Of a stretch of DNA of 32,213 nt, positions 1,328 through 25,063 are shown piece after piece. Under the pieces are notes generated by a model that saw only the letters and a list, made by a program, of their open reading frames with translations, was not told the DNA's origin and did not search any database. The stretch is from Ignavibacteriota bacterium (lineage in GTDB: Bacteria > Bacteroidota > Ignavibacteria > UBA10030 > UBA6906). The stretch spans positions 2,105 to 34,317 of the forward strand of contig PMDK01000330.1 in the NCBI GenBank assembly GCA_003154425.1. The letters are read 5' to 3'. Each line of letters begins with the position of its first letter. Position 1 is the stretch's first letter. The position numbers were made by a program, and so were the translations under genes.

Positions 1328-1466
1328 GTGCTCGCGGCGGGAATCGACGGGGGGGCCGCTCGCACGCGCGCGGTGCTCGTCACGGCTGAAGGAACAGATC
1401 CCCCTCCCCCCTGCCGTCCCCGCAGGCAGCCCTCCTGCTGAGACCGGAGCGAAGGAACATCCATGA
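1328..1466 (+). pseudogene. Remnant of a BadF/BadG-type sugar (N-acetylglucosamine-like) kinase with internal deletion
   Basis: A GTG at 1328, 4 nt after the creatininase stop, starts VLAAGIDGGAARTRAVLV. This is the N-terminal phosphate-binding strand and loop (DGGxxRTRAV) of BadF/BadG/BcrA-type ATPases and N-acetylglucosamine kinases. After about 23 residues the similarity ends and this frame stops at 1441. In another frame the sequence just before 1463 reads [11 protein letters not shown] and ends at a TGA (1464-1466) that overlaps the next ATG as ATGA, the junction style used across this operon. The simplest reading is a kinase gene of normal size (about 300 residues) that lost its middle in an out-of-frame deletion while keeping both ends. 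The N-terminal match is clear; the assignment of the last residues is inferred from the junction. Confidence 0.6.
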
Positions 1467-2056
1467 TCTCTCTTTCAACACTGGTTGCGCGCATCGATCT
1501 TTCCGCAGGGACGATCGACGGTTGCCCCGTCACGCCCCGCACGCTCAGCCAGATGAAGGATACGTTCGCCGACAGGGAATCGTTGAACGTGATGCTCCGC
1601 TCGGGAGACCCGGTCCTTTACACCGTTTCGACATGCGAGTGCGCAGAGGGGGCGGGAGAACTCCACTGCGGACTCGGTGTGATCCAGCCGGGGCGCGTCG
1701 GGGACGAATACTTCATGACGCGGGGACACATGCACGCCCGGAGAGAAGCGCCGGAACTGTACGTCGGCATCCGGGGGAGAGGCATCATGCTGATGCAGAG
1801 CGAGGATGGGAGCGGAAGCTCTGCGGCTGAACTTGCCGGCGAGTGTCTCGTCTACGTCCCCGGGCATACCGCCCACAGGACGATCAACGTGGGGGGGGAG
1901 CCGCTTGTGTACCTCGGCATCTACGCCGCCGATGCCGGACACGACTACGAGTCGATCCGCGCAGGGAATTTCACCGACGCCGTCATCAGGCAGGGGAATC
2001 ACGCCGCCGTGGTCCCGCGCGCCGCATTTATCGCTTCACTGAAATCCTCCGGATAA
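1463..2056 (+). CDS. pgiA: Cupin-type glucose-6-phosphate isomerase
   Basis: A 197-residue cupin protein of the archaeal-type phosphoglucose isomerase family, which interconverts glucose 6-phosphate and fructose 6-phosphate with a bound divalent metal. The metal-binding cupin motif is complete: His89, His91 and Glu98 in [14 protein letters not shown], with a fourth ligand from His135 or His138 in PGHTAHR. These positions nearly match those of the Pyrococcus enzyme (88, 90, 97, 136). The length fits the family (about 190). A GAAGGA ribosome site lies 6 nt before the ATG. The gene overlaps the tail of the broken kinase upstream by 4 nt and is followed 2 nt later by a cupin gene. It is cytoplasmic and appears intact, unlike its neighbours on both sides. 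Confidence 0.85.
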
Positions 2057-2058
2057 CA

Positions 2059-2844
2059 ATGCCGCAGATCCCCGAATCCGTCCCACCCATCGGGTGTGTC
2101 ACGCGTCCCTGGGGTTCGTTCCGCCGGTTCGCGAACAACCGGGAAGTGACCGTCAGTCTCATGAGCGTGAACCCGGGAAAGCACCTGAGCCTGCAGTCAC
2201 ACCGGGGCCGCGTCGAACTCTGGATCGTCCTTGACCCGGGAGCGGTCGTCCAGGTGGATGACGACATCCTCCATCCCGAACCGGGCGCAGAGGTCTGGAT
2301 CCCGGCCGGAGCAAAGCACAGGCTCGGGAGCGCCGGAGGGACTGTGCGCGTGCTGGAAGTGGCGTTCGGCGACTGGCAGCAGGAGGACATCTCGCGGTAC
2401 GACGACGACTACCACCGCCCGCTTCCACTCCGCCGGGCACGCCCTGAAAAGCGAAGAGGAGATCATCCCTCTGGTCGGGCCGTTTCTCGGCGGGGACGAC
2501 CCCCTGTTCGGCAGGACGTGCACGCTCCCCCTCGAATCCTTTCACCGACTGGCGCCTCCTCCTGCCTGGGGGGGGACTGTCACGTCCCGCTCCAGCGGGA
2601 CTCTCTATTATATACGGAATGGGGGCGGCACTCGCGCCCGTCAAACGACCGGATGCTCGGCCGATTCGGCGAACGGTTCGGCTACGAGTTTCCGATCCGG
2701 TACGACTTCCCCGACACCTTCGGCGGAGGGAACCTCTCGCTGCAGTGCCATCCGCGCCCGGAGTACATACACCGCAATTTCGGCGAACCCTTTACGCAGG
2801 ATGAAGCCTACTACATCCTCGACTGCAGGCCGGAGGGGACATAA
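2059..2844 (+). CDS. Mannose-6-phosphate-isomerase-like cupin, fused by deletion to an MPI fragment
   Basis: The ATG lies 2 nt after the pgiA stop. The first 118 or so residues form a complete single cupin like the C-terminal domain of type II mannose-6-phosphate isomerases. It has a RPWGSF start, [14 protein letters not shown] with metal-ligand histidines, [10 protein letters not shown], and the typical ending DISRYDDDY. The family normally stops a few residues later. Here the frame runs on for about 80 unrelated residues (2420-2650) and then re-enters, by chance of frame, real sequence of another enzyme, [17 protein letters not shown] onward, ending at 2844. The fusion is therefore best explained by deletions in the following gene rather than a designed two-domain enzyme. 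The cupin part may still fold and act on a sugar phosphate; the tail is probably not functional. Confidence 0.6.
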
Positions 2845-2872
2845 TGAGAAAGGGGAACGACTGAGGCAATGA
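2421..2872 (+). pseudogene. Broken class I mannose-6-phosphate isomerase (long form)
   Basis: Three pieces of one long class I mannose-6-phosphate isomerase (normally near 590 residues) lie in three frames. Piece one (frame of 2423) reads [20 protein letters not shown] and continues to about 2567. A run of eight G at 2568-2575 then shifts the frame to [14 protein letters not shown] (to about 2635). A jump follows to [31 protein letters not shown] and [12 protein letters not shown] (2652-2833). The Zn-site segment QCHP is kept. Roughly the first 60 residues, some 170 in the middle and the C-terminal half are missing (estimated from memory of the family layout). A final TGA (2870-2872) overlaps the next ATG as ATGA, so the original 3' end seems preserved. 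The enzyme cannot be active. Confidence 0.65.
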
Positions 2873-5484
2873 CGAGCTCATGGAAACGACATCTCCCGCT
2901 CCTCCTCACGCTGACATTCCTCCCGCGGACAGACTTCGCGCAGACGGGACCTCCAAAGGTCGATTTCGGCTATTCCCCCGCCACGCATTTGAGCGCGATC
3001 TGTTTCCCGGCCGACTGGCAGAAAACGGTCATCACCGAGCGGGGTTCGCTCGGATATGATTTCGGCCCCGGCCCGTACACCCGGCCGCTCACGGAAATTT
3101 CCCTGGGAGCGAAGGAAACAGTCCTTTCCCCGGAAGGACCGTCGATCCGTGACCCGCGCGTCCCGATCGCAACGGTCCGACTGAAGGGGGAGGGAGCACG
3201 CGCGCTCCTGGAAGAGTTCGCACTCGGCGGAAGGAGAGTCACGCTCCCCTCTTCTTCATTCCTTGGCGGGAAGATCCGCCGGCTGGGGGGTCTCGCCGGC
3301 GCCCGGGGATGGGCCAGCCCGCCGGACTCCTGCGACCCTGCATTCCGCAACGTCGCCTGGGGGACGAACCGGCCGGTACTCTACAGGGTGCGTGTGCCGC
3401 GGGGGAGCTCCCGCCGTATTGCGCTCGGGTTCTGCGAATCCTACAAGGGGACGCAGGGACAGCGGGTGATGGACCTGCGCGTCGAGGGGGCCCCGCCGAT
3501 GACGATCGATGCACTCAAAGATAATGTGAGAAACAGACCGTATGTGTATTTCCTCGAGGGACGCGATCGGAACGGCGACGGAGAGATTGCCGTCGAAGTG
3601 CATGCCTCACAGAAGGGGGTCGATCCCAATGTGATACTCAACGCATTCTGGGTATTCCCGCAGGGAACGCCCATCACCGAAGAAGAAGTGATCCACGGAG
3701 AGGGGACACGCCGTGCAGAAATCGCCTGGACATGCGGGCTGGAGAACGAACTGGGGACGGCCGTCTCGCGCGTCGACGGCATACTCGCCCATTTTGAAGG
3801 AAAACGGCTCACTCCCGTTGTCAGCGTGCGGACCGGGCGCGCGCTGTCGTTCGACGGGACGACATGCGCACTCGGCTCACCCGGACGCCCGTTCGTCGTC
3901 GCCCGGCCACGCTTCACGAGGGCTTCGCGGGAGGGGAACACATGGAGCCTCGAACTTCCCGAGGGGACGACAGACGCACAGGTGTTCATTCTGAACGGCG
4001 GGAACGCGCGCCGGGCTGCGGCGCATCTCCCGGATCTGAAGGATGCCCGGAATGAGGCGGAGCTCTTCTGGAAGACCAAGGCCGGACTCCCGTTCGGACG
4101 CATCTCGGTTCCCGACAGCGCCATCCAATACGTCCTGGATGCGAGCATCCGGAATCTGTACCAGATCGCCGAGTGGGTGGACGGGCACTTCCAGTTCCAG
4201 CCGGGACCGAGCGTCTACCGGGGGCTCTGGATGCATGATGCAGCGTGGGACGTGTCGACAATGATGGCGCTCGGGGATACCGCTTCGGCGCGCATGTCGA
4301 TCGAGACAGCACTCCGCTACCAGGGGAGGGACGGCCGGATATTCCAGAGCGAACCGTACCCCATGCTGCGGGAGACTGGGCTCATTCTTTTTGCGCTCTG
4401 TAACTACGCGAAGGTCTCGGGGAATACTCCCTGGTTGAGGAGCCACTTCCCCGCCGTGGGCGCTGCAGTGGGATGGATTCGGAGGACGCGCGCACAGACG
4501 CTCACCGATCCCTCCTCCCCCAACTACGGCCTCTTCCCCCCGGGGTTCACCGACGGCGGGATCGGGGGACTTGCTGCGGAATACGGAACCACATTCTGGT
4601 CGTTGAACGCACTCCGGGCCGCCTCACGGAGTGCATCATCGCTGGGGATCGGAGACAGCGCCGGATCGTGGAATGCGCTCGCAGACGACCTGATGGGCTC
4701 CTTCAGGAAAGCATCAATGCGTGACGTCCGGCGCGACTCACACGGCAATATCTACCTCCCCATGAGAGTCGGCGACACATCTTCGGTCACGCTCCCGCAA
4801 CAGGCCAACTGGGGGCTGCTGGACGGGCAGGCGTTCGGACATCTCTTCCCCTATGCGGACCCGGTCCTGAACGGGACGCTTGCCATGCTCGATGCGAACA
4901 CCACCGAAGGAATTCACCAGGACGTCGGATGGCTGAGAAAGGGGGTGTGGCCGTTCTTTACCGCGCAGGAGGGGATCGTGCATATGTACCAGCGGAACTA
5001 TGCGCGGGCGAAGGAGATACTGTACGCTGTCGCCAACCATGCATCCCCTCTCGGCACATGGCTGGAGGAACAGCTTCCGAAGGAACTGGGGACTCGCACG
5101 GCAGGTGACGCCTCCGACGCGACGGCGGGATCACTTTTCATCCTCCTCCTCAGGGATATGATCGTCAATGAACGAACAGACACGGTTGAAGTCCTGGGGG
5201 GAGTCCCTGCCGGCTGGTACATGAGCGGAGCCCGGCTTCGCCTTGACAGGGTGCTGACGGACTTCGGGCCCATCTCGCTTGATCTCAGTGTCTCATCTGA
5301 CGGAGCTACGTGCACGCTTTCGGTGGGGAAGATCCCCCGTGCCACGCATTGCACACTCCGCATCGTGCTTGAAGGATTGCGGGAGGCGGGATTCACGTAT
5401 GCCGGCGGCGGCGGACTTCCCGCAGCACGGGAGTTTCCGGCACCCGAGGGAACAACGATCGCATTCACGGCACGACACCGGTGA
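2869..5484 (+). CDS. Secreted malectin-like / (alpha/alpha)-barrel glycosidase-like protein, copy 1
   Basis: An 871-residue exported protein with an N-terminal signal peptide (basic MTSSWKRH, hydrophobic LPLLLTLTFL, end near AQ). Residues about 140-270 look like a carbohydrate-binding beta domain of malectin type (AWGTNRPVLYRV, RDRNGDGEIAVEV, DPNVILNAFWVFP). From about residue 405 the sequence is helical and resembles six-hairpin glycosidases: VYRGLWMHDAAWD with Asp457, YGLFPPGFTDGG, and GTWLEEQ with Glu733/Glu734 followed by TAGDASDA. These acidic residues are candidates for catalysis, by analogy only. I cannot place it in a numbered GH family. It is the first of two tandem paralogues, overlapping the second by 4 nt (GTGA). 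Function: probably extracytoplasmic hydrolysis of a glycan, substrate unknown. Confidence 0.7.
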   Translation: MTSSWKRHLPLLLTLTFLPRTDFAQTGPPKVDFGYSPATHLSAICFPADWQKTVITERGSLGYDFGPGPYTRPLTEISLGAKETVLSPEGPSIRDPRVPIATVRLKGEGARALLEEFALGGRRVTLPSSSFLGGKIRRLGGLAGARGWASPPDSCDPAFRNVAWGTNRPVLYRVRVPRGSSRRIALGFCESYKGTQGQRVMDLRVEGAPPMTIDALKDNVRNRPYVYFLEGRDRNGDGEIAVEVHASQKGVDPNVILNAFWVFPQGTPITEEEVIHGEGTRRAEIAWTCGLENELGTAVSRVDGILAHFEGKRLTPVVSVRTGRALSFDGTTCALGSPGRPFVVARPRFTRASREGNTWSLELPEGTTDAQVFILNGGNARRAAAHLPDLKDARNEAELFWKTKAGLPFGRISVPDSAIQYVLDASIRNLYQIAEWVDGHFQFQPGPSVYRGLWMHDAAWDVSTMMALGDTASARMSIETALRYQGRDGRIFQSEPYPMLRETGLILFALCNYAKVSGNTPWLRSHFPAVGAAVGWIRRTRAQTLTDPSSPNYGLFPPGFTDGGIGGLAAEYGTTFWSLNALRAASRSASSLGIGDSAGSWNALADDLMGSFRKASMRDVRRDSHGNIYLPMRVGDTSSVTLPQQANWGLLDGQAFGHLFPYADPVLNGTLAMLDANTTEGIHQDVGWLRKGVWPFFTAQEGIVHMYQRNYARAKEILYAVANHASPLGTWLEEQLPKELGTRTAGDASDATAGSLFILLLRDMIVNERTDTVEVLGGVPAGWYMSGARLRLDRVLTDFGPISLDLSVSSDGATCTLSVGKIPRATHCTLRIVLEGLREAGFTYAGGGGLPAAREFPAPEGTTIAFTARHR

Positions 5485-8102
5485 GCAGGCGGCTCATCAT
5501 ATGGAGCGTTGTGTTTTCAGCGGGGAGCTCCATCGCGCGCCCCGGAGACCCGGCAGTGGACCACCGGTACGAGAGCGAACGACAGTACACGCTGCTGAAT
5601 TTCCCGTTTGACTACCACAAAACGATACTGCTCGGCAGCGGCGCTCTGGCATACGATTTCGGCCCCGGGCCATACCATGAGGCCGGGACGGAGATCGGGT
5701 TCGCCCTCCCGGGGGAACAGGACCCCGACATCCGGCAGTATTTCGCGGACCCTGCAATCCCCGTGGCGACGACGGTGCTCCGGAGCCGGTTCATACGGTG
5801 CACGGCAAATGCATTCTGCGTCGTCCCCCCGTCAACAGATTTTCCTTCATCATTCAGCTCGGGCGCCGTCAGGAGGCTGGGACATCTGGCCGGCGCCACC
5901 GAATGGGCCGACCCGGCCGGAATCGTCGATCCCGCATTCCGCGGCACGGCCTGGGGGACCAACCGTCCGATCGAATACCGTGTGAAAGTGAATCCAGGAA
6001 GCGACAAAGTGGTTCTCCTCGGAGTGTGCGAGGGATACAAATCCGGCCGGGGGCAGAGGGTCCTTGAGTGCCGTGTCGAGGGGGCTCCGCCGCAGACGAT
6101 CGACCCCGTCGGGGAGGGAGGAAAGAACGTGCCTCATGTCCTCGTGTTTACCGGACGCGACGTGAACGGCGACGGCGAGATATCGATCGAGGCACGATTC
6201 GCCCCCGAGAGCGGCGATCCCAACGTCATACTCAACGCATTCTGGGTATTCCCGGCCGGAACGACGATCGACACGGGTGCGGTCATACGGGGGGAAATGT
6301 CGGGGAAAGCGGAGGTGTACTGGGGATGCGGACATGAGCTCGAGCTCCTCTCCCCCGCTCCGCGCACAGACGCGCTCACCGCCTCGATCACGGGGGGAGG
6401 TGCGGCCCCCGTCCTTGTGGTCACGACACGCCGCCCTCTTGAGTACGACACACTGAGCGGAACCATACTGCTCCCCCCCGGCATGACGGTTCGCTGCACA
6501 CCCGCTCCACTGGCCGGAAATTCCGCGGGGGACGGCCCGAGGAAGCGCTGGACATTTCCGCTTCCCGGAGGGACGACCCGGGTGGAGCTCCGGGTGACGC
6601 AGGCGCCCGGAGAATTCCCGGGAGGGAAGGACCGCCCTTTCATTCTCAGGGAGGAACTGAACCGGGCCAGGAAGTACTGGAAATCCCAGCGTGTGATACC
6701 GCAGGGGAGAATCGTCATACCGGACAGCGCGCTGCAGGGGATACTCGACGTCAACGTACGTGCGATGTACCAGGCCGCCGAGAAAGTCGACGGAGCCCCC
6801 GTGTTCCAGCCGGGGCCGACTGTCTACAGGGGACTTTTCCTGTACGACCTCCTCCTCATGGGGGAAGCCCTCCTGGCTCTCGGGGACACGGCTTCGGTGC
6901 GTGGATTCATCGAAGGGACATTTCACTACCAGCAGAAGGACGGCCGTCTGCGCGTCCTGACGCCGGCCAATTCGTTCCTGGAGACCCCCATTTTCGTTCA
7001 CGCCATGGGGCATTATGCCCGTCTGTCGCAGAACAAACCGTGGATGGAGATCGAGTGGCCCCGCATGGTGAGCGCCGTGGACTGGATCCGGAACGCGCGC
7101 CGGGAGACGATGCACGACACGGCTGCACCTGGGTACGGACTTTTTCCCCCGGGGTTCGTCGACGGAGGCCTTACGGGTTCAGTGCCGGATTTCAGCACCG
7201 CGACGTTCGCGCTCATGGCGCTGGAAACAGCCGCCGGGACTGCGCGCTGGCTCGGTCATTCGATCCAGGAGAAGGAGTGGCGGTCCCTTTTCGATGAGCT
7301 CCTGGCGGATTATGTGCGCGCCGCCAGACGGAGCCTCAGGCATGACCGCTTCGGCACGGTGTACCTCCCCGTAACGGTCGGCGATACGTCGACGGGGGCA
7401 CCGCCGCAGCGGGGACAGTATGGATTCCTCGGCTCGCTCCGGTACGCGAGGTATTTCGGCTGCCACGACCCGTTCCTCGATTCAATCGCCGGCGGGAACC
7501 TGACGATGCTCGATTCCACGCTGAGTGAAGGGATGATACGGGACGCCGGATGGACGTCGGGCGCGGTCTGGTCATGGCTCGGCCTCGCACACGCCTCCGC
7601 ACTTTCCTGGCGGGGGGAAGGCCGACGGGCGGCAACGATGGTCTACGATGTGGCCAACCACTCCGGGCGGCTCGGCACATGGGTCGAAGAACAGCAGCTC
7701 CGGGGGAAGGGGACGCGATCGACGGGGGACGGTTCAGATGCGGAAACAAGCGCCTGTCTTGTCGGTGCAATCAGGGATCTCCTCTACTTTGAACGGGGGG
7801 ATACACTTGATATCTTCCCCGGAGTCCCTGCCGCGTGGTTCAGGGAAGGATCTCGCATTGCGATTCACGATGTGCCGACGGAGTGGGGGCGGCTCACACT
7901 GGATGCGGCCTCCTCGGCCGCCGGAGTGCTCATCCGGGTTGCGCTTGCGGGCCCCCCCGCCGGGGGGACGGATGCTCCCCTTGTATCGGTCCGGGCCGAG
8001 ACACTGCGGAACGCGGGGGAGCGGGGGGGGCGGATCCCGCCCGGTCCCATCCTCAGGCGCTATGACAGGATGAAGGCCATGGAGATCCGTCTGGCACGGT
8101 AG
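5481..8102 (+). CDS. Secreted malectin-like / (alpha/alpha)-barrel glycosidase-like protein, copy 2
   Basis: An 873-residue paralogue of the preceding gene with the same architecture: signal peptide (MSRRLIIWSVVFSAGSS), malectin-like region (AWGTNRPIEYRV, RDVNGDGEISIEA, DPNVILNAFWVFP) and an (alpha/alpha)-barrel-like half. Conserved with copy 1 are the loop YGLFPPGFVDGG, Asp456 in LFLYDLL, the pair Glu736/Glu737 in GTWVEEQ, and TGDGSDA. The aromatic surroundings of the first Asp differ: copy 1 has MHDAAWD and copy 2 has LYDLLLMG. This suggests altered specificity or loss of activity in one copy. The start is a GTG overlapping the previous TGA. After the stop there is a short GGCGCC hairpin before the next gene. 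No numbered glycosidase family is claimed. Confidence 0.7.
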   Translation: MSRRLIIWSVVFSAGSSIARPGDPAVDHRYESERQYTLLNFPFDYHKTILLGSGALAYDFGPGPYHEAGTEIGFALPGEQDPDIRQYFADPAIPVATTVLRSRFIRCTANAFCVVPPSTDFPSSFSSGAVRRLGHLAGATEWADPAGIVDPAFRGTAWGTNRPIEYRVKVNPGSDKVVLLGVCEGYKSGRGQRVLECRVEGAPPQTIDPVGEGGKNVPHVLVFTGRDVNGDGEISIEARFAPESGDPNVILNAFWVFPAGTTIDTGAVIRGEMSGKAEVYWGCGHELELLSPAPRTDALTASITGGGAAPVLVVTTRRPLEYDTLSGTILLPPGMTVRCTPAPLAGNSAGDGPRKRWTFPLPGGTTRVELRVTQAPGEFPGGKDRPFILREELNRARKYWKSQRVIPQGRIVIPDSALQGILDVNVRAMYQAAEKVDGAPVFQPGPTVYRGLFLYDLLLMGEALLALGDTASVRGFIEGTFHYQQKDGRLRVLTPANSFLETPIFVHAMGHYARLSQNKPWMEIEWPRMVSAVDWIRNARRETMHDTAAPGYGLFPPGFVDGGLTGSVPDFSTATFALMALETAAGTARWLGHSIQEKEWRSLFDELLADYVRAARRSLRHDRFGTVYLPVTVGDTSTGAPPQRGQYGFLGSLRYARYFGCHDPFLDSIAGGNLTMLDSTLSEGMIRDAGWTSGAVWSWLGLAHASALSWRGEGRRAATMVYDVANHSGRLGTWVEEQQLRGKGTRSTGDGSDAETSACLVGAIRDLLYFERGDTLDIFPGVPAAWFREGSRIAIHDVPTEWGRLTLDAASSAAGVLIRVALAGPPAGGTDAPLVSVRAETLRNAGERGGRIPPGPILRRYDRMKAMEIRLAR

Positions 8103-8140
8103 TGGAGTTTTCTTATTCAGGGGTAATCGCTATTTTTCAG

Positions 8141-8160
8141 TGGCGGCGCCTGCGGCGCCA
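8141..8160. repeat. GGCGCC hairpin, REP-like copy 1
   Basis: GGCGCC-TGC-GGCGCC starts at 8145, flanked by TGGC and A, and can fold as a compact GC-rich hairpin 39 nt after a stop codon. The same core, with TTT as the loop, occurs at 31757-31773, also just after a stop. No T-run follows, so it is not a standard intrinsic terminator; it may stabilise or attenuate the mRNA. Confidence 0.5.
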
Positions 8161-8191
8161 CCTTCGGAATACCAATCAAAAAGGAACCGCC

Positions 8192-9532
8192 ATGCGCATG
8201 ACTCTCTGCTCACTCCTCGTCTGCCTCTCCCTCACGACAGCAAGCGCGCAAATGGTCACCGCCGAGGACATGGCTGCGCGCGTGAAGATGGAGTTTCTTC
8301 ACGCCTGGAACGGGTATAAAACGTATGCATGGGGGCATGACGGGTTCAAGCCGGTCAGCAAGACGTACTACGACTGGTACGGCACACCGTTCTACCTGAC
8401 CGCGGTGGAGGCACTCGACACCATGACGCTCATGGGTCTGACGGAGGAAGCGGACAGCACGAGAGAGTTCATCGCCACGCACCTGTCGTTCGACAAGGAC
8501 GTGTACGTCAACGTGTTCGAATTCACGATCCGGGTTATGGGGAGCCTCCTCACCAACTACCAGCTTTCAAGGGATCACCGGCTCCTCGATCTCGCCGATG
8601 ACCTGGGGAGGCGAATGCTCCCCGCATTCGTCAGCGGGACGGGTCTTCCCTACATGGAGGTCAACCTGAAAACGGGAGCGGTGCGCGGGGAATTGAGCAA
8701 CCCGGGAGCGGCGGGGACACTTCTCGTCGAGTTCGGCTCGCTCACCGCGATGACCGGCAAAGGGGCATACTACAACAGCGCCAAGATCGCCCTTCTTTCG
8801 CTGTACCGGGCAAGGTCGGATATCGGACTTGTGGGAGAAGGGATCAATGTGACGACAGGAGAATGGACGAAAACCGACAGCCACCTGGGCGCAGGCATCG
8901 ATTCCTACTATGAATACGTGCTGAAATGCGGCTACCTGTTCGACGATTCCGATTGCAGGCAGATGTGGCTGACGCACTACGCAGCGATAAACAAATACCT
9001 TCTCGACTCGAGCGCGACGGGATACTGGTACGGCCACGCAGACATGAACACCGGGAAGAGGACGAAGACCTGGTTCGGAGCGCTGGAGGCATACTTCCCG
9101 GCCTGCCTCGCACTGTCCGGCGACATCGGCAGGGCCGACCGGCTCATGCAATCCTGTTTTGCAATGTGGTGCAAGTACGGCATAGAGCCCGAAGAGTACA
9201 ATTATGTCACCGGGAAGGCCGAGAAACCGCGCTATTATCTCAATCCCGAGGTCATGGAATCGGCGTACTACCTTTTCAGTGCGACGCATGACCCGGTCTA
9301 CCTGAACATAGGAAAAGTGTTCCTTGACAGCCTCGTCACGTACTGCCGGACGGAGGAAGGATTCACGGAACTGGATAACGTCGTAACGAAGGCGAAGCGG
9401 GACAGGATGGAACCGTATTTCATGGCCGAGACGATGAAGTACCTCTATCTCCTTTTCGCTCCTGCCGAAGTGCTCCCGTTCGACAAGGTCATATTCAACA
9501 CGGAGGGGCACCCCATACGAAAGGCATGGTGA
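8192..9532 (+). CDS. GH47-type class I alpha-1,2-mannosidase, secreted
   Basis: A 446-residue protein starting at the ATG after AAAGGA (8180-8185), with a clear signal peptide (MRMTLCSLLVCLSLTTASAQ). It matches glycoside hydrolase family 47 along its length: AWNGYKTYAWGHD near the start, VEALDTMTLMGL, the Glu110 motif VFEFTIRVMG, the Asp237 motif GAGIDSYYEY, the Glu356 motif PEVMESAYYL, then ETMKYLYLLF and FNTEGHP, whose Thr binds the essential calcium in this family. All three catalytic acids known from eukaryotic class I mannosidases are therefore present. GH47 enzymes are inverting, Ca-dependent exo-alpha-1,2-mannosidases acting on N-glycans. They are common in eukaryotes and uncommon in bacteria. 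The neighbours suggest extracytoplasmic trimming of mannose-rich glycans. Confidence 0.88.
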   Translation: MRMTLCSLLVCLSLTTASAQMVTAEDMAARVKMEFLHAWNGYKTYAWGHDGFKPVSKTYYDWYGTPFYLTAVEALDTMTLMGLTEEADSTREFIATHLSFDKDVYVNVFEFTIRVMGSLLTNYQLSRDHRLLDLADDLGRRMLPAFVSGTGLPYMEVNLKTGAVRGELSNPGAAGTLLVEFGSLTAMTGKGAYYNSAKIALLSLYRARSDIGLVGEGINVTTGEWTKTDSHLGAGIDSYYEYVLKCGYLFDDSDCRQMWLTHYAAINKYLLDSSATGYWYGHADMNTGKRTKTWFGALEAYFPACLALSGDIGRADRLMQSCFAMWCKYGIEPEEYNYVTGKAEKPRYYLNPEVMESAYYLFSATHDPVYLNIGKVFLDSLVTYCRTEEGFTELDNVVTKAKRDRMEPYFMAETMKYLYLLFAPAEVLPFDKVIFNTEGHPIRKAW

Positions 9533-12174
9533 TGCCCGGACTGACACGACGCGATTTTTTCACATGGATGGCTCTCGGCGTCCCCGCCGCTCTCCTGGAC
9601 ACACCGCAGGGGGGTGCCAGGGGCATCCCGTTTCCGCACGAGAAACATCCGCAGACGATCGGCACACCCGTGACGCCCAAAGAGCTCGACCTTTCCCCCG
9701 CACAGTGGATCTGGTATCCTTCCGGGCGGACACTCCCGAACACGTTCGTGTTCTTCCGGAGACAGTTCAGACTGAACGCACCCGTGCGCCGTGCCGCAGG
9801 ATGGGTCTGTGCCGACAGCCGCTACCTGCTCCACGTCAACGGCTCACGCATCCAGTGGGGCCCGGCCCCCTCAGACCCGCGCTGGATGGAGGTCGATCCG
9901 CTTGACATCGCCCCCCGGCTCCGCCAGGGGGACAATGTGATCGCCGCGACAGTCCTCTTTTACGGGCACGGCGACGGGACGGCTCCTGCAGGAAAACCGG
10001 GGTTCATATGCCGCCTCGAGATAGAAACGACGGACGGCGCCGCCACACAGATCGTCTCGGACGGCTCATGGCTCTGTTCACTTGCAGGGTCATGGCAGGC
10101 CGGGCATTACAAGAGGTGGTACCTCCGCTCGCTGCAGGAGGAATTCGACGCGCGGCTGTACCCGTCCGGGTGGGATTCACCCGGGTTCCCCGGGGGCCCG
10201 CGCTGGCACGCCCCCATGGTCCTTCCCGATTCCTCAGCCGCCGCGACGCCGATCTCTTCCGCCTACAACGAGTACGCGCTCGACCTGCGGGGGAACCCGG
10301 TGCACTGCGGGCTCCGGCCGAGAAGCGTCCCCCTCATGCGGGAGTCGATGGTGCCGGCGGTGGGGCTCGCATCGTCCTTCTTCGTCACCTGGCACGTCCC
10401 GCCCGAAGAATATTTCGAATTCCTCACCCCCGAAGCGTTCACCGTCGATGACAGAGTGCCTGCCTCCGGCCGGGGGGAGCACGGGTGGGAGGTTACGCTC
10501 GAGGAAGGAAAGGGGTCGGTCCTGACGTTCGAGTTTGCAGAAGAAGGGATCGGGTGGCCCACGTTCGGCATCAACGCCCCCGCGGGGACAATCGTCGAGC
10601 TCATGGTGCAGGAGAGCCATGATCCTTCCCGGGCCACGCTCCTCAACACGCATTATCATTCGTGGGGACGGTTCACATGCGCTGAGGGGCCCAACAGGTT
10701 CGAGACATTCGACTACGAGGCGGTCAAGTGGGTGCAGCTCCACATCCGGGGAGGCCCCGGGACTGTGACGATCACCGACGTGGGGCTTCGTCGGCGGACA
10801 TACGCATGGTCACGCACTCCCGCGGTCACGACAAGCGACGAAACGATCAACCGGCTCCTCGCTGCGGCGATCAACACGGTCAACAATTCTGTCCATGAGC
10901 TCGCCGTGGACGGGATGGGGCGCGAACGGCAGCAGTACAGCGGCGACGGAAGCCACCAGCTCCACGCCGTGTATCTCGCATTCGGCGAGACGAAACAACC
11001 GGCGAGGTTCGTCAGGACGTTCAGCCAGGGAATCACCGAAGAGGGATTCTTCCTCGATTGCTGGCCCGCGTACGACCGTCTGGCCCGGCTGTGGGAGCGC
11101 CAGATCCAGGTCTCCTACTGGGGACCGCTTGTCGATCACGGCGTCGGATTCGTTTTTGACTGCATGCACCATTACCTCTACACGGGGGACCGGGGAGCCC
11201 TCGAGGAGCCCTTCCCCCGATTGCTGAAATTCCTCACGTACCTCCGCTCTCTCCGCAGGGAAGACGGGCTGCTCCCCGTCGAGGGACTGGGAGTCCCTTC
11301 GGTGTACATCGACCATCTCGCGTACAAGAAACAGAAGCACAAACAGTGCGCGTTCAATCTCTACGCGGTCGCGATGCTGAGGCATGCGCTGGCTCCGCTC
11401 TGCAGTGCATTCGGCGAACGAGGGTGGGAAAAGGAATCCCTCGCCTTCGCCGGGGAGCTCCTGCGGCGGACACAGGAAGTGTACTGGGACAGCGCCGAGG
11501 GGGTCTACGTGGCAAACCGTCCATGGGCAAAGGAGGAAGGGGAATCGCGGACATGCGACAGGTCGCTCGCTCTCGGGATCCTCTACGACCTCTGCCCGGC
11601 GTCGCGGACCGCCCCCGCGCTCTCCCGGCTTGCGGAGGTCCCCCCGTCGATGGGGTTCTCCTACCCGGCCAACTCCTGCTGGAGACTCTGGGCGCTCGCA
11701 AAAGGAGGCCGGCCGGATGTGATACTGAGTGATTTCCGGACGCGTTGGGCCGCAATGTATTCCGTGAAGCACAACAACACGCTGCAGGAATTCTGGGAGG
11801 AGCACCCGGACTCAGGCTCTGTCATGAGCCACTGCTGTCCCGTCCCCCTGTACCTCCTGTACATGGGGATAGCGGGGATACAACCGCTGGCCCCCGGGTT
11901 CACCCGCTGCATGGTGCGGCCTCAGCCGGGCGACCTGGAGCGCGTTGCCCTCACCGCGCTCACCGTGAAGGGGGAGATACTCTTCGCCACGGAGGGGCGC
12001 CCGGGAGACCGTCGCCTTTCGGTGACGATGCCGGCCGGATGCACGGGTGAGCTGACTGTGGACAGAAGGGAAACCCTCCCGCTGAAACCCTGGCCGTCCG
12101 GGCGCGAGCGGGGGCTTCGCCGCTACCTCCTCGCTCCGGGAAGCACCGCGGATCTCACGCTGAAATACACATGA
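9532..12174 (+). CDS. Alpha-L-rhamnosidase-type glycoside hydrolase (GH78), Tat-exported
   Basis: An 880-residue protein. I chose the ATG at 9532, which overlaps the GH47 stop as TGATG and has GAAAGG 7 nt upstream; an ATG two codons earlier is possible. The N-terminus LTRRDFFTWMALG is a twin-arginine signal. N-terminal beta domains (AQWIWYPSG, VCADSRYLLHVNG) resemble rhamnosidase N-terminal domains, followed by FEFAEEGIGWPTFGI and an (alpha/alpha)6 barrel. The motif DGMGRERQQYSGDG gives Asp460, Glu465 and Asp472, the same D-x4-E-x6-D spacing as the active site of Bacillus RhaB. Glu753 in TLQEFWEEH fits the general base. It should release terminal alpha-L-rhamnose from glycans in the periplasm or outside. 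The family call is strong; the exact linkage is unknown. Confidence 0.85.
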   Translation: MPGLTRRDFFTWMALGVPAALLDTPQGGARGIPFPHEKHPQTIGTPVTPKELDLSPAQWIWYPSGRTLPNTFVFFRRQFRLNAPVRRAAGWVCADSRYLLHVNGSRIQWGPAPSDPRWMEVDPLDIAPRLRQGDNVIAATVLFYGHGDGTAPAGKPGFICRLEIETTDGAATQIVSDGSWLCSLAGSWQAGHYKRWYLRSLQEEFDARLYPSGWDSPGFPGGPRWHAPMVLPDSSAAATPISSAYNEYALDLRGNPVHCGLRPRSVPLMRESMVPAVGLASSFFVTWHVPPEEYFEFLTPEAFTVDDRVPASGRGEHGWEVTLEEGKGSVLTFEFAEEGIGWPTFGINAPAGTIVELMVQESHDPSRATLLNTHYHSWGRFTCAEGPNRFETFDYEAVKWVQLHIRGGPGTVTITDVGLRRRTYAWSRTPAVTTSDETINRLLAAAINTVNNSVHELAVDGMGRERQQYSGDGSHQLHAVYLAFGETKQPARFVRTFSQGITEEGFFLDCWPAYDRLARLWERQIQVSYWGPLVDHGVGFVFDCMHHYLYTGDRGALEEPFPRLLKFLTYLRSLRREDGLLPVEGLGVPSVYIDHLAYKKQKHKQCAFNLYAVAMLRHALAPLCSAFGERGWEKESLAFAGELLRRTQEVYWDSAEGVYVANRPWAKEEGESRTCDRSLALGILYDLCPASRTAPALSRLAEVPPSMGFSYPANSCWRLWALAKGGRPDVILSDFRTRWAAMYSVKHNNTLQEFWEEHPDSGSVMSHCCPVPLYLLYMGIAGIQPLAPGFTRCMVRPQPGDLERVALTALTVKGEILFATEGRPGDRRLSVTMPAGCTGELTVDRRETLPLKPWPSGRERGLRRYLLAPGSTADLTLKYT

Positions 12175-19533: not shown

Positions 19534-19604
19534 TCCCGTCCGGGGAGTTGACTGTTCTTCCGTATTTGCTGACATTCACGACAATCACACCAGCGAGGAA
19601 AGCC

Positions 19605-21206
19605 ATGCAACCCATCTACCTCATCGCCAGCGGCGACCTCCGCCTCTCCGCCAACCGGAACTGCGAAGCGGCGCAATCCGCCATGGAACAGCAGCTTGCG
19701 CGCGCAATCGAAGGACTCGGTGGTTCGGTCAAGAGGGCACATCCGTTCGACCCGGCGAAGCAGCACGGATTCATCGACAGCCAGCACTACGGGATGGAGG
19801 TGTTCCGCCGGATCCCTCCCCGCGCCCCGCTCATCGTCGCCGAAGCCGTGTGGCAGTACAGCCATCACGTCCTTGCCGGGCTCATAACACACCGGGGACC
19901 GATCCTGACGGTTGCGAACTGGAGCGGCATGTGGCCGGGGCTCGTCGGGATGCTGAACCTCAACGGATGCCTGACCAAGGCGGGTGTCCCCTACAGCACA
20001 CTCTGGAGCGAGGACTTCACGGATGCATTTGCGACCGGCGGGCTGAAGAAATGGATGAAGACCGGCGGGATCACGCACGACACGTCGCACGTGACCCCGT
20101 ACAACGCCGCACGCGTCCCGGCGGCGGCCGAGGAGGCCGGGAGGGCGTTCGCACGGACGTTCAGACAGAACAAAGCCATCATGGGGATATTCGATGAGGG
20201 ATGCATGGGGATGTATAACGCGATCATCCCCGACGAGCTGCTCCACGCGACAGGAGTGTTTAAGGAACGGCTGAGCCAGTCGACACTCTACGCCAGGATG
20301 CTCACCGTAAAGGAACATGAAGCGAGGGGGGTGCTCGAGTGGCTGAAAGAACGCGGGATGACATTCCGTTTCGGACGACACGAAGACACCGATCTGACCG
20401 AGGCGCAGGTGCTTGGGCAGTGCCGCATGTACATCGCCGCCCTCCGCCTTGCGCAGGAGTTCCGCTGTGATGCAATCGGAATCCAGTACCAGCAGGGTTT
20501 GAAAGATCTCACTCCCGCCTCGGATCTCGCGGAGGGGATGCTCAACAACGTCGAACGCCCCCCGGTGCTCGAGGACGCCGGGGGGGGAGAACTTTTCAAA
20601 GGGGAAGCCCTCCCCCACTTCAACGAGGTGGATGAGTGCGCGGGGTTCGACGCGCTCCTCACGTACAGACTCTGGAGGTCGCTTGGCCTCCCGCCGGAGA
20701 ATACGCTTCACGACATCCGCTGGGGCCGGCAGTTCAACGTCAACGGCACCGACAGGTTTGTCTGGCTCTTCGAAATTTCGGGCGCAGTCCCCCCGGCACA
20801 TTTCGCAGGCGGCTACCGCAGTGCCGTGGGGGAACGCCAACCCCCGATGTACTTCCGGCTGGGGGGGAGCTCGATCAAGGGAGTAAGCAAGCCGGGGCAC
20901 ATCGTGTGGAGCCGGGTGTTCCTCGCCGGCGGAGCCCTCCAGTACGACACGGGGCTCGCGGAGGCGGTCGCGCTCCCGGATCCGGAGACGCACGAGCGGT
21001 GGAGGCTGACGACGCCCCAGTGGCCGGTCATGCACGCGGTGATGGACGGCATCACGAGGGACCAGATGATGGCCCGGCACAAATCCAACCACATCCATGT
21101 CGTCTATGCGCCCGACAGGGCGACCGCACGGAAAGCAATGTTCATCCGTGCCGCCGCGATGAAAGAGCTCGGGCTGAAGGTCAGCTTCTGCGGGAAAACA
21201 CGGTGA
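19605..21206 (+). CDS. L-fucose/L-arabinose isomerase-like family protein
   Basis: A 533-residue protein starting at the ATG after GAGGAAA (19594-19600). It resembles the fucose/arabinose-isomerase fold family. Candidate Mn ligands in the expected order are Glu198 ([11 protein letters not shown]), Asp307 ([10 protein letters not shown]) and His496 ([11 protein letters not shown]), the layout of Glu, Asp and His in FucI. Most such homologues are annotated only as fucose-isomerase-like, and some may act on other deoxy sugars or rhamnose. With a GH78-type rhamnosidase upstream, a deoxyhexose substrate is plausible but unproven. It is cytoplasmic and is followed by an overlapping (GTGA) transporter permease gene, which suggests that uptake and isomerisation are coupled. 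Confidence 0.75.
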
Positions 21207-22183
21207 ACAGGCTCCGCTGTGCACTGCGCTCCCCTGCCGTGCGCGCGTGCCTCTCGCTGGCAATGGTGTTCGCGCTCGGCCTCGTGTTCAATGCCGACGG
21301 GACGTTTTTCTCCTGGGGCACGCACCGTGACATGCTGCGGCAGGTCTCGGTGATCGGCATACTTGCGTGCGGGATGACGGTCGTGATCATCTCTGGAGGG
21401 ATCGATCTCTCCGTCGGGAGCATCCTGGGCCTTTCCGCCGTCCTCTTCTCCCTCTTCACCATGCATGCGGGGTGGAACCCGTTCCTCGCCGCAGTGGCGA
21501 CGCTCGCGGCCGGCCTTTTCCTGGGGGGGCTCTCGGGCTTCCTGACAGGCCGATTCCGCATACAGCCGTTTATCTCCACGCTCGCCATGATGGTCTTTGC
21601 GCGGGGCCTGGCGAAGTGGGTCTCGGGGGGGCAGAAGATCTCGACGGCAGTGCAGGGCGCCGACGGGACGTACGTCTATGTCCCCGTCCCACCGGTTTTT
21701 GATACACTCAGCGCACGCATCGCGGGGGGACACGTCGCCGTCGTCACGCTCGTCCTCGCGGCCTCGCTCCTTCTCTGCGGCCTGTTCCTTTCGCGCATCC
21801 GGTGGGGGAGACACATGTACGCTCTGGGCGGTAACGAAGAGGCCGCACGCTATGCGGGGATTCCGGTGCGGGGGACCACGGTGCTCGCCTATGCTATCAG
21901 CGGGATCCTTTGCGGCGTCGCGGGGATCTGCCAGGCATCACAGGAGCTTCAGGGCGATCCGGAAGCGGGGAGCACGTACGAGCTGTCGGCGATCGCAATG
22001 GTGGTGATCGGGGGAACGAGCCTGCGGGGAGGAGCGGGGACGATCTGGCTCACCGCGCTCGGCATACTCATCATCGGGTACCTGGAGAAGATCCTCAGCA
22101 TCAACGCCGTCGGGGAAGAGACGCGCCTGATGCTGACCGGGGCGATCATCGTGGCGGCTGTGCTGTTTCAGAAGAACCGGTGA
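21203..22183 (+). CDS. Sugar ABC transporter permease (RbsC-like)
   Basis: A 326-residue inner-membrane protein of the BPD_transp_2 family (ribose/xylose/autoinducer-2 type), with about eight to ten hydrophobic segments. Family marks are [17 protein letters not shown] near residue 60, [15 protein letters not shown] near 115, the EAA-like loop [12 protein letters not shown] near 210 and [13 protein letters not shown] near 270. I take the GTG at 21203, overlapping the isomerase stop as GTGA; upstream extension of the frame is antisense-free noise. It should move a monosaccharide together with the binding protein encoded 19 nt downstream. The partner ATPase (RbsA-like) gene that normally accompanies this permease is not in the window. 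Confidence 0.88.
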
Positions 22184-22202
22184 ACACAAAGGAGACCACC
22201 AC

Positions 22203-23132
22203 ATGATACAACGAGCCGTGCTCGCACTCGCGACACTCGCGCTTTTCCTCACGGCGACGCCGCTCCCGGGACAAGCCCCGAGATGGACGATCGGCATGAG
22301 CCAGTGCAACCTGGGGGAACCCTGGCGCGTCCAGATGAACGCAGACATAAAGAAGGCCGCAGAGGGACACCCGGAGATCTCGGTCATCTTCAAGGATGCC
22401 CAGAACGACAATCTCCGCCAGGTCGCCCACCTCGAAGAATTCGTCCGGGCCGGCGTGAACCTGATCATCATCTCCCCTAAAGAGGCTGCGCCGCTGACCC
22501 GGCCCGTGGCCGACGCGTACGGCAAGGGGATCCCCGTGATCGTCCTCGACCGAAAGGTGCTCGGAGACAGGTATACGTGCTTCATCGGAGCAGACAACAA
22601 AAAGATCGGGAGAGCCGCCGGACGCTGGATTGCGACGCTGCTCGGGGGGAAGGGGAAAGTCGTCGAGCTCAAAGGCCTCATGACCTCGATCCCGGGACAG
22701 GACCGTCACTCAGGCTTCCGGGAAGGAATCAAGGGGACACAGATCGAGGTGGTGTTCGAAGCTGACATGAAGTGGCTGGAGCCAAACGCGAGGAAGGAGA
22801 TGGAATCGGCGCTTGCGCGATTTCCATCGATTGACCTTGTGTACGGCCAGAACGACCCCGCCGCTCACGGCGCCTACCTGGCAGCAAAGGCGGCGGGCCG
22901 GGCCGATGCCATGGCATTCGTCGGGATCGACGGTCTCCCGCAGGAGGGACAGATGTACGTCAGACAGGGGATCCTCTCGGCGTGTTTTGAATACCCGACC
23001 GGGGGGAGGGAGGCGATCGAAACGGCCCTGTCCATACTCCAGGGGAAGACCGTTCCCAGGGAGATCACGCTTCCATCCAGGGTCTATACCCGGGATAACA
23101 TCACCAAGGGAGGAGAGTGGCTACCAGAATGA
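22203..23132 (+). CDS. Periplasmic sugar-binding protein of an ABC transporter (RbsB-like)
   Basis: A 309-residue exported binding protein of the Peripla_BP_4 (RbsB) family. A strong ribosome site (AAAGGAG, 8 nt before the ATG) and a signal peptide (AVLALATLALFLTATPLPGQA) are clear. Typical features are the first strand WTIGMSQCNLGEPWR, LIIISPKEAAPLT, the hinge region PVIVLDRKV, KVVELKG, and YGQNDPAAHGAYLAAKAAG. The ligand is a sugar; its identity cannot be read, though the isomerase-like gene and rhamnosidase nearby suggest a deoxyhexose or pentose. It forms a unit with the permease upstream and lacks a neighbouring ATPase. Confidence 0.88.
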   Translation: MIQRAVLALATLALFLTATPLPGQAPRWTIGMSQCNLGEPWRVQMNADIKKAAEGHPEISVIFKDAQNDNLRQVAHLEEFVRAGVNLIIISPKEAAPLTRPVADAYGKGIPVIVLDRKVLGDRYTCFIGADNKKIGRAAGRWIATLLGGKGKVVELKGLMTSIPGQDRHSGFREGIKGTQIEVVFEADMKWLEPNARKEMESALARFPSIDLVYGQNDPAAHGAYLAAKAAGRADAMAFVGIDGLPQEGQMYVRQGILSACFEYPTGGREAIETALSILQGKTVPREITLPSRVYTRDNITKGGEWLPE

Positions 23133-23185
23133 TCACACCGAAGCTGAACACAAAGCGCCCATCCCCGCAGAGGAAGGAGAATTTT

Positions 23186-24337
23186 ATGGCCGTCATCGCC
23201 GGATTGTTCCTCATGCTCTTCTTCGCAGCAGTCGTCATACAGGATGCAGCAGCGCAGGGTTCCTTCAACGGTCTTTCGATGGGGATGGGGAATCTCTCCC
23301 GGCTCTCGAAGGCCAGGACCCGCTCGATCAGCCCGGAGAATTTCACGGGAGGGAAAGGGAAAGCGGGGATGGCGACAGAGGGGACGGGGGCCCAGGCGGC
23401 GCGTGATCTGGGACGGGGATGGAAGATCTCCCCGTCCGTCCGCATCAAGGCAGGGGAGACGTTCACGGCGGCGGAGATCAGCGGGTCTGGGGCGATACAG
23501 CACATCTGGATGACCCCGACGGGAAACTGGCGCCACCTGATACTGCGCATGTACTGGGACGGGGAGGAGACCCCGTCGGTGGAGGCACCCGCCGGCGATT
23601 TCTTCGCGTGCGGCTGGGGAGAGTACGGACAGATCTCATCCCCGGCAGTCTGCGTCAACCCCCACAGCGGCCTCAACTGCTACTGGGAGATGCCGTTCCG
23701 CAAGAGCTGCAAAATCACGCTCCAGGACATCGGGGCCGAAGACGTCACGGTCTATTACCAGATCGACTACACGCTGACGGACGTGCCGGCCGACGCAGCG
23801 TATTTTCACGCACAGTTCCGGAGGGTCAATCCCCTCCGCTCCAGGGACGTGGTGACGATACTCGACGGCGTGAAGGGTTGGGGGCACTACGTGGGGACCT
23901 ACCTCGCCTGGGGGGTCAACAACAACGGCTGGTGGGGCGAAGGGGAAATCAAATTCTACATCGACGGGGATCTGGAGTATCCGACGATCTGCGGGACCGG
24001 TACCGAGGATTATTTCTGCGGGTCGTACGATTTTGAAAACAGTGAAAGAAAGGGGTACCAGGAGTTCACAACCCCTTACACCGGGCTCGCCCAGGTGCTT
24101 CGGCCCGACGGATTCTACAAGTCGCAGCAGCGGTTCGGCCTCTATCGCTGGCACATCATGGACCCGGTCCGGTTCGAGAAAGACCTTCGGGTGACCATCC
24201 AGGCACTCGGGTGGCAGTCGGGAGGGCGGTACCTCCCTCTCCAGGATGATATCGCCTCGACCGCGTTCTGGTACCAGGCCGAGCCCCACGGAGGGTTCCC
24301 GCCGCTCCCGGGGAAGGACCAGCTGGAGATCCAGTAG
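23186..24337 (+). CDS. GH172 (DUF2961) glycosidase, exported
   Basis: A 383-residue protein. The ATG at 23186 has AGGAAGGAG upstream and begins a signal peptide (VIAGLFLMLFFAAVVIQDAAAQ), so it is preferred over the in-frame ATG at 23129. It matches the DUF2961 family, now GH172, throughout: GAIQHIWMT, YWDGEETPSVE, GLNCYWEMPF, VGTYLAWGVNN, WWGEGEIKFY (Glu252/Glu254), CGTGTEDYFCGSYDF (Glu274) and RFEKDLRVTIQ. Characterised members are retaining enzymes acting on furanosides: difructose dianhydride I, alpha-D-fructofuranosides or alpha-D-arabinofuranosides. The paired Glu residues are the likely catalytic pair. It closes the + strand block and faces the aldolase gene tail to tail 31 nt away. Confidence 0.88.
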   Translation: MAVIAGLFLMLFFAAVVIQDAAAQGSFNGLSMGMGNLSRLSKARTRSISPENFTGGKGKAGMATEGTGAQAARDLGRGWKISPSVRIKAGETFTAAEISGSGAIQHIWMTPTGNWRHLILRMYWDGEETPSVEAPAGDFFACGWGEYGQISSPAVCVNPHSGLNCYWEMPFRKSCKITLQDIGAEDVTVYYQIDYTLTDVPADAAYFHAQFRRVNPLRSRDVVTILDGVKGWGHYVGTYLAWGVNNNGWWGEGEIKFYIDGDLEYPTICGTGTEDYFCGSYDFENSERKGYQEFTTPYTGLAQVLRPDGFYKSQQRFGLYRWHIMDPVRFEKDLRVTIQALGWQSGGRYLPLQDDIASTAFWYQAEPHGGFPPLPGKDQLEIQ

Positions 24338-24368
24338 GTTCACGCCTGAGAGTGTGGCGCCGTGACTG

Positions 24369-25025
24369 TCAGCGTTTCAGGGTGCTTTTCGCTTCCACGA
24401 AATTGCGCACCATGCGGGCGGCTTTCTCCGTGAGCACCTCGTAGCGCCCCTCGTCTATCGCCTTCTTGTCGAGCAGGTCGCTGCCGATCCCGACAGCGAC
24501 CGCTCCGGCCTTCACCCATTCCCCCACGTTGTCGACCGTCACTCCTCCCGTAGGCATGAGCCGGATATGAGGGAAGGGGCCCGCCACGTCCCGGAAGTAT
24601 TTGGGTCCGAGTGACGTCGCGGGGAACACCTTGACGATATCCGCTCCCGCCTCCCACGCTGTGAGGATCTCCGTCGGCGTGTAGCAGCCCGGGATCGCCA
24701 CGGCCCCCGCCGCTTTTGTCACCGCCACGACATCAGGCCTGAAAACCGGGCTGACCACGAACTTCGCTCCCGCCGAGACCACGTCATCGGCGGTCCCCCT
24801 GTCCGTCACGGTTCCCGCTCCCACAAGGACGTCCGGCGGAGCGGTCTTCACCATGGCGGCAATGACCTCCACCGCGCCCGGGACGGTCATCGTGATCTCG
24901 ATACACTTCACCCCCCCCTCGCGAATCGCCATGACGACTTTCGTCAGTCGCTCGGGGTCTTTCATCCGGATAACGGCGACGACGCCGGAAGAGAGGAGAG
25001 ATTCAAGTGTTTCATCCTTTGTCAT
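24369..25025 (-). CDS. eda: 2-keto-3-deoxy-6-phosphogluconate (KDPG/KDPGal) aldolase
   Basis: A 218-residue class I aldolase of the KDPG/KHG family. The ATG at 25025 is set by AAGGAG 9 nt upstream; a TTG two codons earlier sits too close to that site. Catalytic residues are Glu43 in CIEITMT and the Schiff-base Lys132 in GADIVKVFPA, with TGGV phosphate-site residues near 160. It splits KDPG (or the galactonate isomer) to pyruvate and glyceraldehyde 3-phosphate, a lower step of Entner-Doudoroff and uronate/sugar-acid pathways. The oxidoreductase at the start of the window could supply sugar acids for such a path. No dehydratase or KDG kinase gene is visible here. Confidence 0.9.
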   Translation of the reverse strand: MTKDETLESLLSSGVVAVIRMKDPERLTKVVMAIREGGVKCIEITMTVPGAVEVIAAMVKTAPPDVLVGAGTVTDRGTADDVVSAGAKFVVSPVFRPDVVAVTKAAGAVAIPGCYTPTEILTAWEAGADIVKVFPATSLGPKYFRDVAGPFPHIRLMPTGGVTVDNVGEWVKAGAVAVGIGSDLLDKKAIDEGRYEVLTEKAARMVRNFVEAKSTLKR

Positions 25026-25063
25026 CGGCAAGCGCTCCTTAGTGAGTCAATACTGTGGCGCTT

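What the first reader, a model, noticed from the sequence alone, without database searches (positions are those of the whole stretch)
2869..8102. Tandem paralogues that may define an unassigned glycosidase family
Two adjacent 870-residue exported proteins share a malectin-like region and a helical barrel-like half with a shared set of acids (Asp457/456, the Glu pair in GTWxEEQ, TGDxSDA). I cannot match them to a numbered GH family. Around the first Asp the two copies differ strongly (MHDAAWD against LYDLLLMG), which suggests split specificity or one inactive copy.
Basis: partly seen in the sequence, partly recalled or inferred. Interest (0 to 1): 0.65.

Follow-up and report, generated by a model that had tools for sequence, protein, structure and literature searches.

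The report
Tandem unnumbered GH15-like sugar-cutting enzymes
Two adjacent genes in an uncultured Ignavibacteria-type bacterium encode exported enzymes that probably trim sugars off a complex glycan, using a glucoamylase-like catalytic barrel that Pfam, NCBIfam and the PDB sequences do not assign to a family; a candidate new enzyme family on a known fold, worth assaying.

Summary
In detail: two intact genes (2869-5484, 871 aa; 5481-8102, 873 aa) overlap by 4 bp and are 39% identical. Neither matches Pfam, NCBIfam or PDB sequences alone. With relatives they form one family with a 12-helix (alpha/alpha)6 barrel, a super-beta-sandwich interrupted by a probable malectin-like insertion, and a C-terminal beta domain. 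Profile comparison places the barrel nearest GH15 (94.7%, 361 columns), with weaker, partial similarity to GH78/GH63. GH78 membership fails: its catalytic Glu636 is Tyr in all 12 close relatives. The two copies belong to two old, supported subfamilies; both keep the acids and the second type also occurs alone, so split specificity beats inactivity. GH47 alpha-mannosidase is beside the family in nine genomes of four genera. Substrate is inference. CAZy could not be searched. A candidate new family on a known fold; not categorically new.

The parts
2869..5484 (+). P1: 871-aa exported GH15-like (alpha/alpha)6 glycosidase, subfamily 1
   Evidence: ORF; family and tree; dN/dS
5481..8102 (+). P2: 873-aa tandem paralogue, subfamily 2
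2869..2943 (+). P1 probable signal peptide (MTSSWKRHLPLLLTLTFLPRTDFAQ)
   Evidence: read by eye; no predictor available
3256..3678 (+). P1 malectin-like insertion (about residues 130-270), absent from remote clades
   Evidence: alignment gap; fold hits to malectin-like ANX1/ANX2 E 4e-3; profile hits to malectin 2JWP/2K46 at E 0.6, suggestive only
4117..5163 (+). P1 twelve-helix (alpha/alpha)6 barrel (residues 417-765)
   Evidence: AlphaFold2 models, (pLDDT 57.6 and 68.3; pTM 0.56 and 0.75)
4216..4239 (+). P1 Y450-RGLW454-MH-D457, -1 subsite motif (GH15 Y326..W330-x-R332-D333)
   Evidence: hhalign; numbering; PMC9883506; PMC12446779
4552..4554 (+). P1 D562, proposed general acid in the alpha5-alpha6 loop
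   Evidence: invariant in 12 close-family proteins, Asp in 9 and Glu in 1 of 10 of the TAT clade, Glu at the next position in two other clades; loop position
5065..5070 (+). P1 E733-E734; E733 proposed general base in the alpha11-alpha12 loop
   Evidence: 29 of 30 in the broad alignment; aligned with GH15 base motif
6825..6848 (+). P2 Y449-RGLF453-LY-D456, altered -1 subsite motif
7161..7163 (+). P2 D561, proposed general acid
7686..7691 (+). P2 E736-E737; E736 proposed general base
8102..9532 (+). GH47 alpha-mannosidase family protein, likely start ATG near 8192, conserved neighbour
   Evidence: Pfam E 5.8e-112; adjacency
9526..12174 (+). GH78-like protein downstream in the same operon-like run
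   Evidence: Pfam
23117..24337 (+). GH172 (DUF2961) protein, on the same contig as this family in five genomes
   Evidence: Pfam E 3.5e-95

Best explanation
P1 and P2 are exported exo-acting glycosidases that belong to an unassigned family on the glucoamylase-type (alpha/alpha)6 barrel (GH15 / clan GH-L-like). A non-reducing-end sugar sits in a pocket lined by Y450, W454 and D457. D562, in the loop between barrel helices 5 and 6, protonates the glycosidic oxygen; E733, in the loop between helices 11 and 12, activates water, giving hydrolysis most likely with inversion. The position after the conserved Trp that is Arg in GH15 is His in most of subfamily 1 and Tyr/Gly/Gln/Cys in subfamily 2, so neither is a plain glucoamylase and the two probably remove different sugars or linkages from one glycan, together with the neighbouring GH47 alpha-mannosidase. 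The malectin-like insertion may bind the substrate. Shown: genes, paralogy, conservation, subfamilies, synteny. Inferred: fold (moderate-confidence model), catalytic roles (by homology), exo action, inversion, substrate.
For: Barrel model with 12 helices, and top fold matches nearly all (alpha/alpha)6 glycosidases and phosphorylases. Profile-profile: family barrel versus GH15 94.7%, E 5.7e-8, 361 columns over the whole barrel; a sister clade independently 95.4%; GH78 72%, GH63-like 88% over 164 columns, GH95 41%, GH116 27%, GH127 and GH125 under 1%. Broad profile finds glucodextranase 1UG9 at Y-x3-W-x-R-D. Y450, W454, D457, E733, D747 conserved in 27-30 of 30 proteins of four clades, two of which keep the exact GH15 WxRD. 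GH15 acid and base lie in the alpha5-alpha6 and alpha11-alpha12 loops (PMC12446779), where D562 and E733 lie. GH47 beside the family in nine genomes of four genera.
Against: No experimental data. AlphaFold2 models rest on five sequences and the loops with D562 and E733 have pLDDT under 50. The GH15 profile used had only four members. Fold search ranks GH78 above GH15. D562 is not aligned exactly with the GH15 catalytic Glu, and D636 (29 of 30) is an alternative acid. Inversion cannot be read from sequence: dextran dextrinase retains with GH15-type residues. The CAZy database was not available, so an existing number cannot be excluded.
Confidence: 0.6

Rival explanations
1. The two proteins are very divergent GH78 alpha-L-rhamnosidases, working like those enzymes on rhamnose.
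For: Relative L005 passes the Pfam Bac_rhamnosid6H cut-off (28.0 against 24.5 bits) and others come close; family profile finds fungal GH78 structures 8HMM and 8IWD at E 7e-7 and 4e-6 over about 95 residues; GH78 leads both fold searches; a GH78-like gene lies downstream.
Against: GH78 general acid Glu636 (DE636RLGW640TGD643 in SaRha78A, numbering checked; role in PMC7263609) is Tyr450 in all 12 close-family proteins and Tyr in 27 of 30 superfamily members. Against clean GH78 the profile match is 72% over half the barrel, weaker than GH15.
Confidence: 0.1
2. One copy (P2) is a non-catalytic or decaying paralogue.
For: P2 has one of the two longest branches of the close family (1.16; G150 1.17) and departs at 21 of 157 family-conserved columns, including W453F in the -1 subsite. 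Further copies in relatives G004, G010 and G016 carry frameshifts. Two same-genus relatives lack it.
Against: Open frame of 873 codons, all mapped acids kept, and its subfamily (100/99 support) is the only copy found in the loci of G006, G014 and G018, next to GH47 in the latter two.
Confidence: 0.13
3. Retaining transglycosylase or a phosphorylase rather than an inverting hydrolase.
For: Clan relatives include GH65 and GH94 phosphorylases, which also score in the fold searches, and the dextran dextrinase homologue of GH15 is a retaining transglucosylase with the same two Glu.
Against: A carboxylate (E733) is present at the general-base position in 29 of 30 members, whereas phosphorylases use phosphate there; the proteins appear exported and sit in a hydrolase locus, where phosphorolysis is unlikely (inference).
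Confidence: 0.12

Closest known systems
GH15 (glucodextranase 1ULV/1UG9, bacterial glucoamylase 1LF6)
   Same: (alpha/alpha)6 barrel; Y-x3-W-x2-D -1 motif; Glu base in the alpha11-alpha12 loop; acid in the alpha5-alpha6 loop; beta-sandwich in front
   Different: Arg332 replaced by His or other residues; proposed acid is Asp and shifted; malectin-like insertion; extra C-terminal beta domain; no Pfam GH15 hit
GH78 alpha-L-rhamnosidase (SaRha78A 3W5N, AoRhaA 8HMM, AnRha-2 8IWD)
   Same: barrel topology, W and D of W-x2-D, C-terminal beta domain; best fold-search scores
   Different: catalytic acid Glu636 is Tyr450; profile similarity covers only the first half of the barrel
GH125 exo-alpha-1,6-mannosidase and MmpH (7QSJ)
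   Same: barrel, W-x-R-D motif of GH125, Asp as catalytic acid in GH125, mannose theme of the locus
   Different: profile comparison 0.2%; no family match
GH63-like (MGH1-like, PF22422)
   Same: weak Pfam hits in several members and 88% profile match over 164 columns
   Different: match covers under half the barrel; all Pfam scores under the cut-off

Membership tests
GH15 | Match to the curated family model over its cut-off | tested here: not met
   no PF00723 hit for P1 or P2; one remote relative at E 0.018, below cut-off
GH15 | (alpha/alpha)6 barrel | tested here: met
   12 helices in the right order; moderate confidence
GH15 | Catalytic base Glu in the alpha11-alpha12 loop | tested here: met
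   E733 aligned with A/P-E motif, 29 of 30
GH15 | Catalytic acid Glu in the alpha5-alpha6 loop | tested here: inconclusive
   Asp562 in that loop in this family; Glu one residue on in two sister clades; not column-exact
GH15 | W-x-R-D at the -1 subsite | tested here: not met
   W (Phe in P2) and D kept, Arg replaced by His/Tyr/Gly/Gln/Cys
GH78 | Curated model over cut-off (PF17389) | tested here: not met
   no hit for P1 or P2 at E 0.1; among relatives L005 is over the cut-off, the others below it
GH78 | General acid Glu636 (DER-x-G-W-x-G-D) | tested here: not met
   Tyr in all 12 close-family proteins
GH95 | Profile similarity over the barrel | tested here: inconclusive
   41%, 261 columns
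GH127 | Profile similarity over the barrel | tested here: not met
   0.5%, 23 columns
GH125 | Profile similarity over the barrel | tested here: not met
   0.2%
Any numbered CAZy family | Listed in CAZy or matched by dbCAN | not testable with these tools
   CAZy and dbCAN are not held; Pfam and NCBIfam negative
Malectin domain | Significant match of the inserted domain | tested here: inconclusive
   malectin at E 0.6 by profile; malectin-like ANX1/2 at E 4e-3 by fold

The most novel reading that the evidence does not exclude
The family founds a new GH family whose members, with GH47, a GH51-like arabinofuranosidase and GH172, take apart a mannose- and arabinofuranose-bearing glycan such as mannose-capped D-arabinan of actinobacterial cell walls, with the two tandem subfamilies cutting different terminal linkages.
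Probability: 0.12. Interest if true: 0.65.

Novelty: new variant of a known kind. Interest (0 to 1): 0.42.

Why it matters
If active, these would be the first characterised members of an unassigned branch near GH15 with an altered -1 subsite, in a bacterial group whose glycan use is little studied. The branch is larger than the window: three further clades (TAT-signal, hypothetical, discoidin-bearing) in related genomes share the motifs and mostly lack a catalytic-family assignment, so one assay could annotate many genes. The naturally occurring subfamily pair makes the question of what sets specificity at the -1 subsite directly testable.

Tried and rejected
Viral-contig scans gave a single remote relative (L054); the plasmid collection gave none; one genome-contig scan gave only two same-genus orthologues. 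A first profile comparison gave GH78 99.9%, but that set contained a member of this very family (L079) and remote relatives (L067, L068, L074, L078); rebuilt without them it fell to 72%. Literature searches on Ignavibacteria, GH47 and new families found no description of these proteins. The idea that D457 is catalytic was dropped after mapping to GH15 Asp333. The beta-1,2-glucan cluster of Ignavibacterium album (PMC8861115) resembles the setting of the discoidin clade but not of this locus.

Full report
What is there. The two ORFs at 2869-5484 and 5481-8102 are intact, overlap by four bases and encode 871 and 873 residues. They align over 850 columns with 39% identity. Neither has a Pfam-A hit at E 0.1, an NCBIfam hit at E 1, or a meaningful PDB sequence match. 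The window lies on a 34.6-kb contig of a fragmented genome of 3.84 Mb, 85.5% complete, and these were the only two matches in it. Same-genus orthologues of P1 (about 83% and 71%) are in MAGs titled 'Ignavibacteriae bacterium' from a fen. P1 evolves under purifying selection, dN/dS about 0.15 and 0.17.

The family. In 60 relatives, full or partial close homologues (38-82%) occur in genomes of the same family and one of another family of the order. In a sample of 297 genomes of the phylum with a strict limit, close-family matches appeared only in the own genome, G014 and one distant genome, G150. So the close family looks rare, though the sample is limited. A wider superfamily was found around it: a TAT-signal clade (L014-L022, L024), a clade of about 800 residues (L023, L025, L026, L029, L031) and a discoidin-bearing clade (L027, L028, L030). 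Profile comparisons link them to the close family at 100, 100 and 99.7%.

Anatomy. AlphaFold2 on the whole protein gave mean pLDDT 57.6, pTM 0.56; residues 380-871 alone gave 68.3 and 0.75. Both show twelve barrel helices followed by a beta domain. The N-terminal half is beta-rich. Compared with the other clades, the close family has an extra block at about residues 130-270. Its profile finds malectin itself at E about 0.6 (two of three hits), and the model finds malectin-like plant ectodomains at E 4e-3.

Kinship of the barrel. Fold searches return (alpha/alpha)6 enzymes from many families, GH78 first, so fold alone does not choose. The profile of the close family finds fungal GH78 structures over about 95 residues; that of the superfamily finds glucodextranase first. 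Profile-profile alignment against sets drawn from related genomes gives GH15 94.7% (361 columns), GH63-like 87.6% (164 columns), GH78 72.2% (201 columns), GH95 41%, GH116 27%, GH127 0.5%, GH125 0.2%. The 800-residue clade reaches GH15 at 95.4% on its own. Clean GH78 and GH15 sets give only 0.5-0.7% against each other, so the GH15 signal is not a general property of such barrels. The GH15 set was small (four proteins).

Catalytic residues. The GH15 alignment puts Y450, W454 and D457 on the motif that is Y326, W330 and D333 of glucodextranase; numbering was checked. These residues line the -1 subsite or contact the base (PMC9883506; PMC12446779). E733 falls on the general base motif (E628). GH15 catalytic residues lie in the alpha5-alpha6 and alpha11-alpha12 loops; in the model these loops hold D562 and E733. 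D562 is invariant in the 12 close members and is Asp in nine of ten TAT-clade members; the two other clades have Glu at the next position. D636 (29 of 30) is a fallback candidate for the acid.

Why not GH78. In SaRha78A the general acid is Glu636 (PMC7263609), four residues before W640; one search confirms the numbering. The five GH78 proteins from these genomes in which the motif was found keep this Glu. In this family that position is Tyr450 in every close member, the residue found in GH15. The Pfam GH78 model passes its cut-off for L005 but not for the other relatives listed.

Two copies, two subfamilies. The tree splits most of the close family into a P1 clade (95/95) and a P2 clade (100/99). 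P1-clade members read W-x-H-D; P2-clade members read W-x-(G/C/Q/Y)-D followed by hydrophobic residues, and P2 itself has Phe for the Trp. Members of both types lie side by side in G000, G004, G010 and G016, in either order. P2-type genes are the only copy found in the loci of G006, G014 and G018, next to GH47 in the latter two. P2 keeps every mapped acid but departs at 21 of 157 conserved columns, and further copies in G004, G010 and G016 carry frameshifts. Divergent specificity is the better reading, with decay possible in single lineages.

Setting. GH47 lies next to the family (or within a few kb, G007) in nine genomes of four genera and is often the only GH47 of the genome. MFS sugar transporters and GH51-like arabinofuranosidases lie upstream in several. 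GH172 (DUF2961), known from D-arabinan breakdown (PMC10115798, PMC10509167), is on the same contig in G000, G003, G007, G014 and G046. The window also has a sugar ABC transporter, a weakly fucose-isomerase-like gene and a KDPG-type aldolase. This suggests a glycan with mannose and arabinose or a related sugar; which one is not known.

Verdict. A candidate unassigned glycosidase family, GH15-like in mechanism, not a member of GH15 or GH78 by the tests run. Whether CAZy already numbers it could not be tested.

Noticed in passing
window 1463-2841: Two cupin-type sugar-phosphate isomerase genes or fragments (PF06560 GPI and PF01050 MannoseP_isomer) lie between the creatininase gene and P1; the same interval is only about 180 bp in relative G003, so they are an insertion or were lost there.
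   Followed up: partly
window 19548-25031: Fucose-isomerase-like protein (weak), sugar ABC permease and binding protein, GH172 and KDPG-type aldolase form what looks like a pentose or deoxysugar catabolic set.
   Followed up: partly
L037, L041, L044: Further copies of the family in relatives G004, G010 and G016 are split by frameshifts; pseudogenes or assembly errors.
   Followed up: partly
L024:598-2883: TAT-clade member with the conserved residues altered (D457 to E, D562 to E, E733 to Q, Trp454 to Gly), a possible inactive paralogue.
   Followed up: no
L051:4436-13421: A discoidin-clade relative sits between GH144 endo-beta-1,2-glucanase-family genes and a GH2 gene, so that clade may act on beta-1,2-glucan fragments.
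   Followed up: partly
L054:206-6228: An IMG/VR contig carries a TAT-clade relative and an asparagine-synthase-like gene beside what read like phage terminase and portal genes; probably host DNA at a prophage edge.
   Followed up: no
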